Source: Haliclystus octoradiatus | Taxonomy: Eukaryota; Cnidaria; Staurozoa; Stauromedusae; Haliclystidae | NCBI GenBank assembly: GCA_916610825.1 | Contig: OU744452.1 | Location: 19,815,781 to 19,879,780 of the forward strand | Direction of reading: 5' to 3' | Length of the DNA: 64,000 nucleotides | Shown: positions 55,655 through 64,000 of the stretch, in pieces | Numbering within the stretch: position 1 is the stretch's first letter | Layout: each line of letters opens with the position of its first letter | Program-made: the position numbers and the translations under genes | Notes under the pieces: generated by a model | Told to the model about the DNA's origin: nothing | The model's input: only the letters and a program-made list of their open reading frames with translations | Databases searched by the model: none

Positions 55655-56004
55655 AATCGAACAGTCGACGTTGTCTCCGTTGTTACAGTTCACGGAGGCA
55701 GCGAGGCTACATCATTCATAGCCTACAAAGCAGCCCTGGTTTTATTTCTGAAATCATAGGGTCTGTGAACTGAAGTGTGATTTTCAGCCCAACAAGTTCC
55801 CATGAGTTTGGGATATAATTTATGCATTACGTCATTGTTGCGGGTTGACGAAGACTTCATTGTTTAATTGATGTTATGAAAGTATGCTGCCGCCATCTTC
55901 AATACCGATTCTTCATTCTCTCCATGTCGATGGCCACCTATTTATATCTATGAATATGGATATCCCCTTTATTATAAATGAAATAAAGATTAGTCAAACT
56001 TTTA

Positions 56005-56044
56005 CCGTGACTCTGAGTTTCGCGCTTGTGCGCTCTTTAGACGG
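56005..56044 (-). ncRNA. Hammerhead motif with mutated core
   Basis: On the minus strand: CCGT, CTAAAGA, GCGC-ACAA-GCGC as a perfect stem II, GAAAC, TCAGA, GTC, ACGG. Stem I (CCGT/ACGG) and stem II are ideal, but the invariant G of CUGANGA is A, which is known to abolish hammerhead cleavage. Confidence 0.6.
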
Positions 56045-56085
56045 AATTTATTCTAATAATTAATTTACTCATTTATTAATAAATT

Positions 56086-56125
56086 CCGTCTGAAGAGCTC
56101 ACAAGCGCGAAACTCAGGGTCACGG
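56086..56125 (+). ncRNA. Hammerhead ribozyme motif
   Basis: In type I order: CCGT, CTGAAGA, GCTC-ACAA-GCGC, GAAAC, TCAGG, GTC, ACGG. Stem I is 4 bp (CCGT with ACGG), stem II has one U-C mismatch, stem III has A-U and C-G, and cleavage would follow GTC. The core bases are complete. Its inverted partner is 56005-56044. Confidence 0.68.
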
Positions 56126-56202
56126 TAAAACTTAACTAATCTTTATTTCATTTATACATAGCTCTACTTTACTGTATCAAGCACTCTCTTAAATTGCTTG
56201 CA

Positions 56203-56470
<268 letters not shown>

Positions 56471-56479
56471 ATAATAATA

Positions 56480-57647
56480 TATGGCGAAAGAGTCAAAGAA
56501 TACACATTCTTTACTGTTACTCAAGTTTCACGCTTTTCACAGCGATCTTCAGACAGATTTTTTACTCAATGAAAAATATACATGATATCTACGTTCTATG
56601 ATAAACTCTCCGTAATGCTGCTTTCTATTGTTTAATTAATACAATGCTATTGTTATTGCTATTGTTAATACAAGTGGTAGAAAAATGTGATGGTTTCCTT
56701 TATTCTCAGTAAATGATTATTTATTATGTTTTTGATTTATTAAAATTGGACAGGTAATATTTATTTTCGTGACGACATTTAGATATTAATTCAGTTTTTT
56801 TGTTTATTATTGGTTCTTTTGCGCATATAATATGATATTTTTCTAAGAGGCATAAATGGCATTTTTTCGAGATGTTGTTGTATGCTTTTGCATTAGCGAT
56901 GGCTGACCATTCGATTTTGTATGTGATGTTTTTGTCTTTTAAATCCCAAACGTGTTTGGATAGTTGTGTGCTAGTGTTGTATTTTCTGTGTTTAAGTGTT
57001 GCCTTGTGTTGCGTGTAGCGTTGTTTGAACGTGCCTTCCGTCAACCCAATGTAGCTCTGTCCTTCTTGGTCAAATGGAGTAGTGACGTTTGCTTTATAGA
57101 TAATACTTTTCATTTGGCATTTGTTGTTGAAAGGGCATAAGTTTTTGTATCTACAGTTGCATTGGTTGGTGTTAGTTGTGGTGTTTGTTGTCGAATTGAT
57201 TATTTTATTGTTATGGCTCTTTAGGATTGAATTCATGTTATTTGTGCAACTATAGCTGACTTTGATTGTGTTGAGATTGAAAATCTTGTTTAATTTGTTC
57301 GATTTCGGGAAGTGTTTTTTTATTAAGTTAAGGAACGTACGACCGATGTTAGTTTTCACGCTCTTGTTGTAGGGTGGATTGAACCATATGGCTTTTCTTG
57401 ATCGGCATTTTCTATTGTTGTTTAATGTTGTTTCTCGTGGATTGTATATTAGGTGCGTATCGTGTCCGCTTTTTCTCAAAGCGTCAGCGTATGGTTCTTT
57501 ACTGTTCTCGAATATTGTGGAGTTAGTGGATAAATCAGATAGTCTTTGATTAATAGCTGTTGGTATTTGTTTTAGTATATTTGGCGGGTGGTTGGAGTTG
57601 ATGTTAATGTATAATGGTTGGTCGTTAGGCTTTCGATATGGATATTT
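56480..57647 (-). mobile_element. Penelope-like element copy A (5' truncated)
   Basis: Reverse-strand PLE fragment running from the end of the reverse-transcriptase region through the GIY-YIG endonuclease, a 3' region of about 200 nt and a hammerhead, ending in (TTA)n. It is the longest of the four copies. It is joined head-to-head to copy B at about 57647/57648, where the mirrored sequence TTCAATCCACC resumes in the other direction. Shares diagnostic bases with copy B (TGATAAACT near 56597; AAAAGAACC near 56818) rather than with C and D. Confidence 0.85.
56514..56556 (-). ncRNA. Hammerhead ribozyme motif of PLE copy A
   Basis: Minus strand: CTGT, CTGAAGA, T-CGCT-GTGAAA-AGCG-T, GAAAC, TTGA, GTA, ACAG. 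Stem I CTGT/ACAG and stem II CGCT/AGCG pair fully, stem III is A-U and C-G, and cleavage would follow GTA. Identical in all four PLE copies. Hammerheads in PLE terminal repeats are an established finding. Confidence 0.72.
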
Positions 57648-57650
57648 CAA
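56724..57650 (-). CDS. PLE reverse transcriptase C-terminus plus GIY-YIG endonuclease (copy A)
   Basis: This frame encodes about 308 residues, starting at the truncation junction rather than a true start. The first 100 residues (AIWFNPPYNKSVKTNIGRTF, then HFPKSNKLNKIFN and VSYSCTNNM) are the conserved linker after the PLE reverse transcriptase. Then come a cysteine cluster CNCRYKNLCPFNNKC and the GIY-YIG nuclease: IIYKANV, SYIGLTEGTFKQRYTQHK, KHVWDL and CHLCLLEKYHIICAKEP. PLE enzymes reverse-transcribe at target DNA nicked by this nuclease. The catalytic reverse-transcriptase motifs are missing, so the copy is not autonomous, but the nuclease frame is intact. Confidence 0.85.
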   Translation of the reverse strand: MKYPYRKPNDQPLYININSNHPPNILKQIPTAINQRLSDLSTNSTIFENSKEPYADALRKSGHDTHLIYNPRETTLNNNRKCRSRKAIWFNPPYNKSVKTNIGRTFLNLIKKHFPKSNKLNKIFNLNTIKVSYSCTNNMNSILKSHNNKIINSTTNTTTNTNQCNCRYKNLCPFNNKCQMKSIIYKANVTTPFDQEGQSYIGLTEGTFKQRYTQHKATLKHRKYNTSTQLSKHVWDLKDKNITYKIEWSAIANAKAYNNISKKCHLCLLEKYHIICAKEPIINKKTELISKCRHENKYYLSNFNKSKT

Positions 57651-57665
57651 TCCACCCTACAACAA

Positions 57666-59854
57666 CACCCTACAACAGGATGACCCTTGTTTTCTCTTGC
57701 ATGAAACAACACATCCGGTACTGCAAAGGAAAGGCGGGGTCATCCCTTTGTTGGGAAAGTCTGGCAGAGTTTTCACAAGCGTTTAACGACTGTCTTGAGA
57801 ATTCTCTTGTTGGACAACCCACAAGAGGTGATTTCTCCATTCTTTCCTCAGCCATCATCAAAGCAGCCGAGACCGTTTTGCCGCGGAAGAAAAGACAATG
57901 GTCACGCGTCTCTTGGGACAGTGACGCAATGATCACACAGGTAAGATATGAATTGAAACTTGCCAAAAAACAATTACGTGATTGTTCTCCTACTATACAC
58001 AATATCAGTCTTTTACAATCTATTGTTGATCAAAAAACAATAGATCTCGCTGCCGCTCATAACGCCCTAATCGAGCGTGAATTAAACGCTATAATTTTAG
58101 CGGTAAAAACGGCTAGTAATAGTAATAAGCATTGTATAGCATGGAAAGAGATAAGGCGTCTTAAGAACCCATCCCACAAGCCCTTATTAGTTGAAGCGTA
58201 TGATTCTGTCGAGGCAAATAGTATGATTCGTAATTATTTTTATGATTTATATAATCCCCCATCCTGTCTACTATCGTTAAATAAATTAGCTCCACCGCCT
58301 AACTTCTCCCCTCCTGATATGTCCAATTATAATACTTCTCCTGTTACTAATGACGAATTATGCTGTATTCTATTTTCTATGAAACCCCTTGCGTCTCCTG
58401 GACCAGATGGAATCCCCACCCTGGCACTTCGAGAACCTCTTGTACAAAATGAGCTACTTACCATCATAAATGCCGTTTTGTCAGGGGAGCAACAAGTACC
58501 GGGTCAATGGCGAAGATCTGCTGTCATCACCGTCAACAAGAACACGTCTAGAAACCTAGACCAACAGAGGGGTATCACTTTAAGTTGTACTGCAGGAAAA
58601 GCTAATAATAAGATTCTACATAAAAGGCTGGCGTCAGTAATTGACCCATATTTAAGATACAATCAAAATGGTGGCAGGAATAGCCGGTCAACCTTAGGCC
58701 AAATTCTATCAGCTAGGATATTGTTAGAAGGCTGTAGGACTCATCAAAAAGACATTGTTGCAATTTTTATTGACTTCAAAAAGGCCTTTGACTCTGTGTT
58801 AAGATGCAGAATCCCAGAAATATTAGATTTCTATAATGTACCTATTGTTCTTATCGATGCTATTATGTCCTTTTATTCTTCTACTTCGGCTTTTGTTAGA
58901 ACTCACTATGGTGATACTGATGATTTCCCGACAGCTTGTGGCGTACTACAGGGTGACACATTGTCCCCTTTTTTATTTATACTATTTATCGATTATGTTT
59001 TTCGTATTTCATGTCCTGACTCTTCCGGTTTTATCCTTGATCGTCGTAGGTCTTCACGTCATCCAGAGCGCAGCGTATCGGACCTCTCATTCGTTGACGA
59101 TATTGCTATCTTAACAAATAGCATATCTGAAGCACAACAGCTTCTTGATGAAGTTGAACGGGTTGGTAAAACGGTAGGCTTGACAATTAACACGACTAAG
59201 ACGAAATTTATTGCTTTAGGCATAAAACAGGCACACCTTGCTACATCTAATGGTGACATAGAACGTGTAGATTCGTTCAAGTACCTAGGTTCTGTACTTC
59301 CATCTTCTTCAGATGATTTAACACAACGTAGAGGCCAGGCTTGGGCAGCCATTAGAGGTCTGAATAAATTCTGGGCGTCCGATGTCAACACTGACGTTAA
59401 GTTAAGACTGTTCAGACACACGATAGAACCTGTTCTATTATATGCTTCTGAAACGTGGGTTCTATCAACTTCACTATTGACCCGACTTGACTCAGCTTAT
59501 GACGCCATGCTTCGGCATGCTTTAGGAGTACATTGGCCCAACTTACTGTCTACTGCTAAACTTAGGAAACTTTCCCCTTCTGCCTCTGCTATTGCTCACC
59601 AACGTCAGATGTCTTTTTTAGGTCACATCGAAAGATCAAAGACGTATGCCCCTCAACCGCTGCATGACATCCTTCATTGGCAACCGAAGGAGATGCTTCG
59701 ACGGGGCTATGGTAGAGTAGTATCTTTTCATAATGTTTTGTATCGTGAATTGTGTTATTTAAAAGTTTCTTTGTCAGCTATGTCTGACCGTGTTTTGTGG
59801 CGTTCTTTATGTAGCAAATATGTAAGGCGTAAGAGGGACGGCACATTCCTATAA
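57666..59854 (+). CDS. LINE reverse transcriptase, truncated ORF2 (about 729 residues)
   Basis: The open frame runs into the element from the target DNA (57638) and ends in TAA at 59852-59854. The first 200 residues are the linker between endonuclease and reverse transcriptase. RT motifs follow in order: SPGPDGIPTLAL, FIDFKKAFDSV (motif A), GVLQGDTLSPFLF, FVDDIAIL (motif C, catalytic Asp pair), then TKTKFIALG and VDSFKYLGS. The C-terminal part (LLYASETWVL, LRHALGVHW, FLGHIERS) resembles that of RTE/jockey-group LINEs; the clade is my reading from memory. There are no stops or frameshifts, so the insertion is recent. The endonuclease domain is missing through 5' truncation. Confidence 0.85.
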
Positions 59855-59874
59855 TGTGACTGTCTATACTACTA
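57666..59874 (+). mobile_element. 5'-truncated LINE inserted in PLE copy B, 9-bp target duplication
   Basis: CTACAACAA flanks both sides (57657-57665 and 59875-59883), and the empty site is preserved in PLE copy A. The element lacks the 5' endonuclease region. It has only about 20 nt after the stop codon and ends in short CTA repeats, as RTE-type LINEs often do. Its first 12 nt (CACCCTACAACA) repeat the adjacent target sequence. Confidence 0.85.
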
Positions 59875-60523
59875 CTACAACAAGAGCGTGAAAACTAACA
59901 TCGGTCGTACGTTCCTTAACTTAATAAAAAAACACTTCCCGAAATCGAACAAATTAAACAAGATTTTCAATCTCAACACAATCAAAGTCAGCTATAGTTG
60001 CACAAATAACATGAATTCAATCCTAAAGAGCCATAACAATAAAATAATCAATTCGACAACAAACACCACAACTAACACCAACCAATGCAACTGTAGATAC
60101 AAAAACTTATGCCCTTTCAACAACAAATGCCAAATGAAAAGTATTATCTATAAAGCAAACGTCACTACTCCATTTGACCAAGAAGGACAGAGCTACATTG
60201 GGTTGACGGAAGGCACGTTCAAACAACGCTACACGCAACACAAGGCAATACTTAAACACAGAAAATACAACACTAGCACACAACTATCCAAACACGTTTG
60301 GGATTTAAAAGACAAAAACATCACATACAAAATCGAATGGTCAGCCATCGCTAATGCAAAAGCATACAACAACATCTCGAAAAAATGCCATTTATGCCTC
60401 TTAGAAAAATATCATATTATATGCGCAAAAGAACCAATAATAAACAAAAACACTGAATTAATATCTAAATGTCGTCACGAAAATAAATATTACCTGTCCA
60501 ATTTTAATAAATCAAAAACATAA
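59873..60523 (+). CDS. PLE GIY-YIG endonuclease fragment (copy B)
   Basis: The frame resumes after the LINE with YNKSVKTNIGRTFLNLI and continues to TAA at 60521-60523. Same motifs as copy A: CNCRYKNLCPFNNKC, SYIGLTEGTFKQRYTQHK, CHLCLLEKYHIICAKEP. Private differences are HKAILKH and INKNTEL. Shares the CAKEP variant with copy A. No start codon of its own. Confidence 0.8.
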   Translation, partial: YYNKSVKTNIGRTFLNLIKKHFPKSNKLNKIFNLNTIKVSYSCTNNMNSILKSHNNKIINSTTNTTTNTNQCNCRYKNLCPFNNKCQMKSIIYKANVTTPFDQEGQSYIGLTEGTFKQRYTQHKAILKHRKYNTSTQLSKHVWDLKDKNITYKIEWSAIANAKAYNNISKKCHLCLLEKYHIICAKEPIINKNTELISKCRHENKYYLSNFNKSKT

Positions 60524-60690
60524 TAAATAATCATTTACTGAGAATAAAGGAAACCATCACATTTTTCTACCACTTGTATTAACAATAGCAATAACAATAG
60601 CATTGTATTAATTAAACAATAGAAAGCAGCATTACGGAGAGTTTATCATAGAACGTAGATATCATGTATATTTTTCATTGAGTAAAAAAT

Positions 60691-60733
60691 CTGTCTGAAG
60701 ATCGCTGTGAAAAGCGTGAAACTTGAGTAACAG
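60691..60733 (+). ncRNA. Hammerhead ribozyme motif of PLE copy B
   Basis: Plus-strand copy identical to that at 56514-56556, located 168 nt after the endonuclease stop codon and about 30 nt before the (TTA) tract. Confidence 0.72.
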
Positions 60734-60780
60734 TAAAGAATGTGTATTCTTTGACTCTTTCGCCATATATTATTATTATT

Positions 60781-60839
60781 TACCGCTCTGTCAAATGAAG
60801 ACATAGAGCCCTATATTATCTGCTATTAGATAAACATAA

Positions 60840-60935
<96 letters not shown>

Positions 60936-60999
60936 AAAATTTATGTTTATCTAATAGCAGATAATATAGGGCTCTATGTCTTCATTTGACAGAGCGGTA
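60781..60999. repeat. Inverted repeat with (TTA)n centre between PLE copies B and C
   Basis: Arms of about 60 bp, left TACCGCTCTGTCAAATGAAG and right CTTCATTTGACAGAGCGGTA, enclose a (TTA)n run at about 60838-60932. The mirror symmetry continues outward into copies B and C, so the whole 59884-61850 interval is one large palindrome. It may be a MITE inserted in the array before duplication. Confidence 0.75.
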
Positions 61000-61046
61000 A
61001 ATAATAATAATATATGGCGAAAGAGTCAAAGAATACACATTCTTTA

Positions 61047-61089
61047 CTGTTACTCAAGTTTCACGCTTTTCACAGCGATCTTCAGACAG
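61047..61089 (-). ncRNA. Hammerhead ribozyme motif of PLE copy C
   Basis: Minus-strand sequence identical to 56514-56556. Confidence 0.72.
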
Positions 61090-61256
61090 ATTTTTTACTC
61101 AATGAAAAATATACATGATATCTACGTTCTATGGTCAACTCTCCGTAATGCTGCTTTCTATTGTTTAATTAATACAATGCTATTGTTATTGCTATTGTTA
61201 ATACAAGTGGTGGAAAAATGTGATGGTTTCCTTTATTCTCAGTAAATGATTATTTA

Positions 61257-61858
61257 TTATGTTTTTGATTTATTAAAATTGGACAGGTAATATTTATTTT
61301 CGTGACGACATTTAGATATTAATTCAGTTTTTTTGTTTATTATTGGTTCTTCTGCGCATATAATATGATATTTTTCTAAGAGGCATAAATGGCATTTTTT
61401 CGAGATGTTGTTGTATGCTTTTGCATTAGCGATGGCTGACCATTCGATTTTGTATGTGATGTTTTTGTCTTTTAAATCCCAAACGTGTTTGGATAGTTGT
61501 GTGCTAGTGTTGTATTTTCTGTGTTTAAGTGTTGCCTTGTGTTGCGTGTAGCGTTGTTTGAACGTGCCTTCCGTCAACCCAATGTAGCTCTGTCCTTCTT
61601 GGTCAAATGGAGTAGTGACGTTTGCTTTATAGATAATACTTTTCATTTGGCATTTGTTGTTGAAAGGGCATAAGTTTTTGTATCTACAGTTGCATTGGTT
61701 GGTGTTAGTTGTGGTGTTTGTTGTCGAATTGATTATTTTATTGTTATGGCTCTTTAGGATTGAATTCATGTTATTTGTGCAACTATAGCTGACTTTGATT
61801 GTGTTGAGATTGAAAATCTTGTTTAATTTGTTCGATTTTGGGAAGTGTTTTTTTTTTT
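61257..61858 (-). CDS. PLE GIY-YIG endonuclease fragment (copy C)
   Basis: Endonuclease part as in copy A, with CAEEPIINKK instead of CAKEP. The open frame continues upstream through the homopolymer into antisense copy D; that extension is an artefact of the palindrome. Ends with TAA at 61257-61259. Confidence 0.78.
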
Positions 61859-61877
61859 TTTTTTTTTTTTGGGAAGT

Positions 61878-61910
<33 letters not shown>

Positions 61911-61911
61911 C
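61849..61911. repeat. Poly-T centre of the copy C/D palindrome
   Basis: Two T runs separated by GGGAAGTG, which repeats the GGGAAGTG just before the first run. It marks the head-to-head joint. Such a tract may be real slippage or a consensus error at a hairpin tip. Confidence 0.7.
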
Positions 61912-61912
61912 C

Positions 61913-62520
61913 TTAACTTAATAAAAAAACACTTCCCAAAATCGAACAAATTAAACAAGATTTTCAATCTCAACACAATCAAAGTCAGCTATAGTTGCAC
62001 AAATAACATGAATTCAATCCTAAAGAGCCATAACAATAAAATAATCAATTCGACAACAAACACCACAACTAACACCAACCAATGCAACTGTAGATACAAA
62101 AACTTATGCCCTTTCAACAACAAATGCCAAATGAAAAGTATTATCTATAAAGCAAACGTCACTACTCCATTTGACCAAGAAGGACAGAGCTACATTGGGT
62201 TGACGGAAGGCACGTTCAAACAACGCTACACGCAACACAAGGCAACACTTAAACACAGAAAATACAACACTAGCACACAACTATCCAAACACGTTTGGGA
62301 TTTAAAAGACAAAAACATCACATACAAAATCGAATGGTCAGCCATCGCTAATGCAAAAGCATACAACAACATCTCGAAAAAATGCCATTTATGCCTCTTA
62401 GAAAAATATCATATTATATGCGCAGAAGAACCAATAATAAACAAAAAAACTGAATTAATATCTAAATGTCGTCACGAAAATAAATATTACCTGTCCAATT
62501 TTAATAAATCAAAAACATAA
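61913..62520 (+). CDS. PLE GIY-YIG endonuclease fragment (copy D)
   Basis: It begins LNLIKKHFPKSNKLNKIF and carries the same cysteine cluster and GIY-YIG motifs as copy A, with CAEEP as in copy C. Ends in TAA at 62518-62520. The upstream poly-phenylalanine reading is homopolymer. Confidence 0.78.
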
Positions 62521-62687
62521 TAAATAATCATTTACTGAGAATAAAGGAAACCATCACATTTTTCCACCACTTGTATTAACAATAGCAATAACAATAGCAT
62601 TGTATTAATTAAACAATAGAAAGCAGCATTACGGAGAGTTGACCATAGAACGTAGATATCATGTATATTTTTCATTGAGTAAAAAAT

Positions 62688-62730
62688 CTGTCTGAAGATC
62701 GCTGTGAAAAGCGTGAAACTTGAGTAACAG
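62688..62730 (+). ncRNA. Hammerhead ribozyme motif of PLE copy D
   Basis: Plus-strand sequence identical to 60691-60733. Confidence 0.72.
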
Positions 62731-62761
62731 TAAAGAATGTGTATTCTTTGACTCTTTCGCC

Positions 62762-64000
<1,239 letters not shown>

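What the first reader, a model, noticed from the sequence alone, without database searches (positions are those of the whole stretch)
56480..62762. Four Penelope-like copies in alternating orientation form nested giant palindromes
Copies A(-), B(+), C(-), D(+) alternate head-to-head, tail-to-tail, head-to-head with arms of about 0.85-0.9 kb. Diagnostic variants pair A with B (TGATAAACT, CAKEP, GATTTCGGG) and C with D (GGTCAACT, CAEEP, GATTTTGGG), so each head-to-head pair seems to come from a single inverted duplication, not from four independent insertions. This suggests that the integrating molecule was itself a self-complementary dimer, or that template switching to the opposite strand occurs during PLE integration.
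Basis: partly seen in the sequence, partly recalled or inferred. Interest (0 to 1): 0.78.

Follow-up and report, generated by a model that had tools for sequence, protein, structure and literature searches.

The report
Paired Penelope insertions with unequal ends
The four mirror-image copies are two separate insertions of a Penelope-type jumping element in one ATT repeat tract, and each looks as if two DNA copies were made together from one RNA, starting at two different points, one on each side of the cut.

Summary
The array is real. A(-)B(+) and C(-)D(+) are two insertions of a Penelope-like element (PLE) in one (ATT)n tract. Head-to-head PLE pairs are already known (PMC3846280, passages).

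What this genome adds is a strict rule. The element has two 3' ends: site 1 (no tail) and site 2 (with a ~70-nt tail X). In 46 of 46 scored two-armed units, from 44 of 59 fetched intervals, one arm ends at site 1 and the other at site 2. In a second PLE family 10 of 10 chosen pairs do the same. Arms share source alleles: the minor allele is in both arms in 40 cells, in one arm in 2. Their 5' ends coincide more often than re-pairing gives, and either arm may reach further 5'.

Fold-back self-priming, the published suggestion, predicts a second arm copied from the first and does not give this. I favour twin target-primed reverse transcription, most likely on one RNA; two RNAs from one locus remain possible.

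Each window copy carries a hammerhead-type motif; a few arms elsewhere start at its predicted cleavage site.

The parts
56468..57641 (-). PLE copy A, 5'-truncated, ends at site 1 (tail-less)
57646..57665 (+). 5' end of PLE copy B, cut off from the rest by the LINE; 4-nt filler to A
   Evidence: sequence read
57666..59874 (+). LINE (RVT_1) inserted in B; CTACAACAA repeated at 57657-57665 and 59875-59883
59875..60846 (+). PLE copy B, main part, ends at site 2 with tail X (about 60781-60846)
60847..60931 (.). (ATT)n between the two units
60932..61857 (-). PLE copy C, ends at site 2 with tail X
61858..61908 (.). C/D centre: T-run with GGGAAGTG copied a second time
61909..62776 (+). PLE copy D, ends at site 1 (tail-less)
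56204..56467 (.). (ATT)n target, left
62777..62980 (.). (ATT)n target, right
56514..56556 (-). hammerhead-type motif in A
60691..60733 (+). hammerhead-type motif in B
61047..61089 (-). hammerhead-type motif in C
62688..62730 (+). hammerhead-type motif in D

Best explanation
The region holds two independent PLE insertions in one (ATT)n tract, each made by twin target-primed reverse transcription. The endonuclease cuts both strands of an AT-rich target about a dozen bases apart. Each free 3' end primes one cDNA on element RNA; one cDNA starts at site 1, the other about 70 nt downstream at site 2. Both run towards the RNA's 5' end and stop early or run off. The two cDNA 3' ends are then joined head to head by end joining with microhomology or filler. 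Shown here: the pair structure, the pairing of one site-1 with one site-2 end, shared alleles, excess coincidence of 5' ends, shared flank stretches, ribozyme-type motifs. Inferred: double-strand cutting with 3' overhangs, simultaneous priming, one shared RNA rather than two from one locus, the joining pathway.
For: 46 of 46 scored units pair one site-1 with one site-2 arm; 31 of these 46 were found by queries without tail X. Second family: 10 of 10 chosen pairs. At 13 shared variant sites the minor allele is in both arms 40 times, in one arm 2 times; random re-pairing averages 39 one-arm cells, minimum 10. 5' ends within 20 nt in 16 of 46 units against 3.6 expected; without the two recurrent start places 5 of 30 against 0.91, p 3e-4; also without R1960-1990, 4 of 22 against 0.36, p 4e-4. 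Tailed arm further 5' by more than 20 nt in 16 units, tail-less arm in 14, within 20 nt in 16. Centres overlap by 1-8 nt in 15 of 46; 11 of 17 scored fillers of 9 nt or more match nearby arm sequence at shuffle p<=0.025. Flanks share stretches such as 14 nt at C1:31769076 and C4:10144223. Which arm carries the tail does not follow tract orientation, 17 against 14. PMC11167929 (main text read): PAc protein cleaves and extends both strands, prefers ATT, and has two internal start sites that bound the tail.
Against: Five insertions show only one arm within the fetched DNA. Most units have clearly unequal 5' ends, so one RNA per unit is a statistical inference; among the 30 units outside recurrent starts the rank correlation is weak (0.28, p 0.13). 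Overall arm divergence is only modestly lower within units (97 in 17,121 sites, 46 of the 97 from one unit) than between units (0.83%), and a unit's own partner is often not its closest arm. PMC11167929 reports no difference in start site between strands in vitro. Conversion between palindrome arms could raise allele sharing. Each search scored 40 of 678 to 1955 candidates, best matches first, in one genome. Arms were assigned by hand from the hit table.
Confidence: 0.68

Rival explanations
1. Twin priming on two separate RNA molecules from the same source locus, for example one bound by each half of a dimeric enzyme.
For: Shared alleles and unequal 5' ends fit; PMC11167929 predicts a protein dimer.
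Against: Coincident 5' ends at non-recurrent positions need a further reason. Use of two different start sites in every scored unit is natural if one RNA offers each site once, less so with two RNAs (inference).
Confidence: 0.22
2. Self-priming: the first strand (or an antisense template) folds back and is copied into the second arm, as suggested for Adineta vaga.
For: Gives identical head-to-head arms and near-equal 5' ends; discussed in PMC3846280 (passages).
Against: A copied arm should carry the same 3' end, yet 46 of 46 units have different ends. If copying stopped at site 1, the tail-less arm could not extend beyond the tailed arm, but it does by more than 20 nt in 14 of 46.
Confidence: 0.05
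3. Integration of a preformed self-complementary DNA dimer, or inverted duplication after insertion.
For: Arm identity of A/B and C/D.
Against: Different 3' ends on the two arms, unequal truncation in most units, and recurrence at 44 of 59 intervals.
Confidence: 0.03
4. Assembly artefact.
For: Palindromes and microsatellites are hard to assemble; no reads were available here.
Against: The same unit type occurs at 44 of 59 intervals, some with non-repetitive flanks and shared target bases; two families with different tails follow the same rule.
Confidence: 0.02

Closest known systems
Penelope elements of Adineta vaga (PMC3846280; passages seen)
   Different: There explained by self-priming; no one-of-each rule is stated in the passages seen
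PAc, Poseidon of Anolis carolinensis (PMC11167929; main text read)
   Same: Both strands cut and extended, ATT preference, two internal start sites bounding the tail, hammerhead near the start of the ORF
   Different: In vitro start sites do not differ by strand, and the main text does not say that one integration uses both. Here family 1 has ATT tracts at both sites; family 2 has none at site 2
L1 twin priming (PMC3649969 and PMC5668948 seen in search listings only; mechanism recalled)
   Same: Both target strands prime on element RNA and give an inverted structure
   Different: In L1 the second primer is internal and arms hardly overlap (recalled); here two neighbouring sites give largely overlapping arms
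PLE-associated small hammerhead ribozymes (Lunse et al.; Cervera and de la Pena; seen only as cited)
   Same: CTGANGA and GAAAC core (recalled) with a minimal stem III
   Different: Here a few arm 5' ends fall on the predicted cleavage site

Membership tests
Penelope-like element with GIY-YIG endonuclease | C-terminal GIY-YIG endonuclease | tested here: inconclusive
Penelope-like element with GIY-YIG endonuclease | PLE-type reverse transcriptase in the same ORF | tested here: inconclusive
   712-residue ORF shows FDIENFYPSI and YRDDG, RT-like by recall; no Pfam match and no PDB sequence match.
Penelope-like element with GIY-YIG endonuclease | Partial tandem copies giving pLTRs | tested here: met
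   Tandem copies in C11:7912484, C2:6291239, C4:23212417 and C1:30337484 with a period of about 2516 nt.
Penelope-like element with GIY-YIG endonuclease | Inverted head-to-head copies with a tail on one | tested here: met
   46 of 46 scored units.
Penelope-like element with GIY-YIG endonuclease | Hammerhead ribozyme motif in the pLTR | tested here: met
   Sequence motif only. 127 core matches in the merged loci; 118 have a stem I of 4 or more pairs, 10 of these with a stem sequence other than CTGT/ACAG, and 9 lack the stem. Reversed sequences gave 0. Rfam makes no call on the copies searched. Cleavage not tested.
Twin-primed target-primed reverse transcription | Both strands of one target prime separate cDNAs from element RNA | not testable with these tools
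   Inferred from end and allele statistics.
Fold-back self-primed palindrome | Second arm is a copy of the first, with the same 3' end | tested here: not met
   0 of 46 units have equal 3' ends.

The most novel reading that the evidence does not exclude
The two PLE reverse-transcription start sites are not alternatives: in nearly every two-armed integration one serves each strand of the target, both cDNAs are copied from the same RNA molecule, and the pair with a tail on one arm is the signature of a two-primer, one-template integration. Some templates are hammerhead-cleaved RNAs whose new 5' end sets the head of the insert.
Probability: 0.5. Interest if true: 0.75.

Novelty: new member of a known kind. 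Interest (0 to 1): 0.6.

Why it matters
How PLEs integrate, and why they leave inverted pairs with a tail on one copy, is treated as unresolved in PMC3846280 (passages) and PMC11167929 (main text). A genome with many young units lets the question be addressed by counting ends, alleles and junctions. The result disfavours self-priming and links the two in vitro start sites to the two ends of one insertion, which is directly testable. Seven library searches showed no title or abstract start stating the one-of-each rule or twin priming of PLEs; most listed papers were seen only as listings, and three PLE papers that I looked up are not held, so I cannot say that the rule is unpublished.

Tried and rejected
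Tail X as a separate repeat next to the PLE: rejected, because X also lies just before the ORF in tandem copies and follows the 3' end at a fixed distance. Complementarity of the (ATT)n target to the RNA as what decides priming: not needed, since tract orientation is 17 against 14, (AT)n targets are used and family 2 has no ATT tract at site 2. Hammerhead by Rfam: no call on PLE copies or on L035. RNA folding: no unusual stability (z -0.87; z -1.57), and the fold is not the hammerhead. Single-sequence AlphaFold model of the ORF: mean pLDDT 33, useless. Pfam on the ORF and on six relatives, NCBIfam and PHROGs: nothing convincing. Foldseek on the C-terminal model: nothing significant.

Not counted among the 46: 15 of the 59 merged intervals. 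No partner arm within the fetched DNA: 5 insertions in 4 intervals (C1:30337484, C1:34654000 with two, C1:37759000, C2:10216635). One arm truncated: C1:32108131, C7:12255567. Masked N: C5:25304344. Ends or centre outside the fetched DNA: C1:15205441, C1:16874437, C8:17021221, C7:7742271, and the half loci C2:5683747 with C2:5687331, and C7:4672278 with C7:4675756. C7:7742271 and the two split loci agree with the rule as far as seen. Among the 46, one arm of C10:18424244 is cut by the locus edge and one of C4:18655725 by a LINE, both already past site 1. The filler test left out A/B, C/D and C4:18655725.
Full report
The observation. One search confirms the four copies and their arms. B is interrupted near its 5' end by a LINE with an RVT_1 domain between two copies of CTACAACAA.

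What the units are. Five searches of the window's own genome (262 Mb, unnamed) gave 41 to 48 matches each, from 678 to 1955 first-look candidates of which 40 were scored. The loci of the first four and merge with the window into 59 intervals; 44 of them hold at least one fully scored head-to-head unit, 46 units in all. A 73-bp stretch between B and the (ATT)n, which at first looked like a separate repeat, is the PLE 'tail': it follows the 3' end at a fixed distance and also lies just before the ORF in tandem copies with a period of about 2516 nt. In the coordinates used here (R, one period), site 1 is at about 2443-2448 and site 2 at 2514-2516.

The end rule. All 46 scored units have one site-1 and one site-2 end. 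Fifteen were found only through the tail query and so needed one tailed arm; the other 31 were found by queries without the tail. In a second PLE family, about 70% identical in DNA, I chose 10 pairs with minus and plus matches facing each other within about 4 kb from the 48 matches, and fetched only their outer ends. In 10 of 10 one end is tail-less and the other tailed; their centres were not read.

Allele sharing. At 13 sites where two alleles each occur in at least two units, both arms of a unit carry the minor allele in 40 cells and only one arm in 2. Re-pairing arms at random gives a mean of 39 one-arm cells, minimum 10 in 2000 trials; 35 of 37 units with comparable sites show no discordance. 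The window's C/D variants at R2309 and R2311 belong to a minority type (9 units against 23). Over all sites the contrast is smaller: 97 differences in 17,121 sites within 32 units, 46 of them in C6:27642867 and there largely one deletion, against 0.83% between units. Private later changes explain most of the within-unit differences (inference).

5' ends. They lie within 20 nt of each other in 16 of 46 units against 3.6 on re-pairing. Without units that start at the two most recurrent places it is 5 of 30 against 0.91 (p 3e-4). Also without the cluster near R1970 it is 4 of 22 against 0.36 (p 4e-4), and at 50 nt 4 against 0.91 (p 0.01). The rank correlation among the 30 is weak (0.28, p 0.13). 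The tailed arm reaches further in 16 units and the tail-less arm in 14 by more than 20 nt. The second fact is hard for fold-back copying.

Ribozyme and run-off. A hammerhead-type motif lies in each of the four window copies. In the merged loci the core pattern occurs 127 times; 118 have at least 4 pairs in stem I and 9 do not. Of the 118, 108 have the stem CTGT/ACAG and 10 another stem (CCGT/ACGG, TTGC/GCAA, TTGT/ACAA, TCGC/GCGG). One search, which required the stem, found none in reversed sequence; its count of 95 main copies included the window twice, and one search gives 91. The core rule is recalled; Rfam makes no call on these copies. The predicted product would start at R2395. Of 92 arm starts 5 are scored there and one at 2394, in four units; in one of these units both arms are scored at 2395 although they overlap by 5 nt. 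Ten starts are at R2342, which may be the RNA start. All arms at R2395 come from the tail-query sample, which favours short units.

Centres and targets. Centres overlap by 1-8 nt in 15 of 46 units, abut in one and carry filler in the rest, apart from A/B, whose gap is the LINE with a few bases. Of 17 fillers of at least 9 nt scored, 11 match neighbouring arm sequence at shuffle p<=0.025. In 31 of 46 units both flanks are ATT tracts, in 5 both are AT tracts, in 10 at least one is neither. In all 31 units scored on both sides the ATT flanks are oriented as one interrupted tract. Shared flank stretches at less repetitive targets are for example 14 nt (C1:31769076, C4:10144223) and 17 nt (C1:31225889), upper bounds because element ends share letters. 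In C/D the T-run and the second GGGAAGTG read as slippage and re-copying by the reverse transcriptase, helped by the AAAA of the C/D variant (inference from the sequence).

Why two units. The (ATT)n runs in one orientation left of A, between B and C, and right of D. A/B and C/D carry different source variants and have their tails facing each other. The simplest reading is two separate insertions in one tract. C1:39148600 shows two units in one (ATT)n in a similar way.

Mechanism. PMC11167929 (main text) shows in vitro that PAc cuts and extends both strands, prefers ATT and starts at two internal sites bounding the tail, without a strand difference. PMC3846280 (passages) describes head-to-head copies and the optional tail, and proposes self-priming. 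The counts here fit a joint picture: each two-armed insertion uses both start sites, one per target strand. That both cDNAs come from one RNA molecule is the most economical reading of shared alleles, coincident 5' ends and the use of both sites, but two RNAs from one locus are not excluded.

Limits. One genome, mostly young best-scoring copies, no reads, hand-assigned arms, and a literature library that lacks three PLE papers I looked for.

Noticed in passing
window 55997-56133: A 56-nt inverted repeat whose right arm holds a hammerhead-type motif (56086-56125); Rfam HH9 weakly (20.3 bits, below its cut-off), other Rfam rows there are miRNA hairpins. Possibly a short pair of another family.
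   Followed up: partly
window 57666-59874: LINE with RVT_1 inside copy B; pieces of the same LINE lie beside PLE copies in L005 and L050.
   Followed up: partly
window 61858-61908: T-run with GGGAAGTG repeated, read as reverse-transcriptase slippage and re-copying at the C/D centre.
   Followed up: partly
L052 1139-1896 (C1:39148600): A second four-copy alternating array: two PLE units in one (ATT)n.
   Followed up: yes
L054, L057, L026, L080: Insertions with a single arm in the fetched DNA, the 5' end meeting a repeat tract or other sequence directly.
   Followed up: partly
L010, L015, L025, L027, L029, L031: Further PLE relatives at about 64-70% DNA identity lie close to copies of this one.
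   Followed up: partly
L083/L084 and L048/L049: Apparent local tandem duplications of a PLE unit or part of it with its flank.
   Followed up: no
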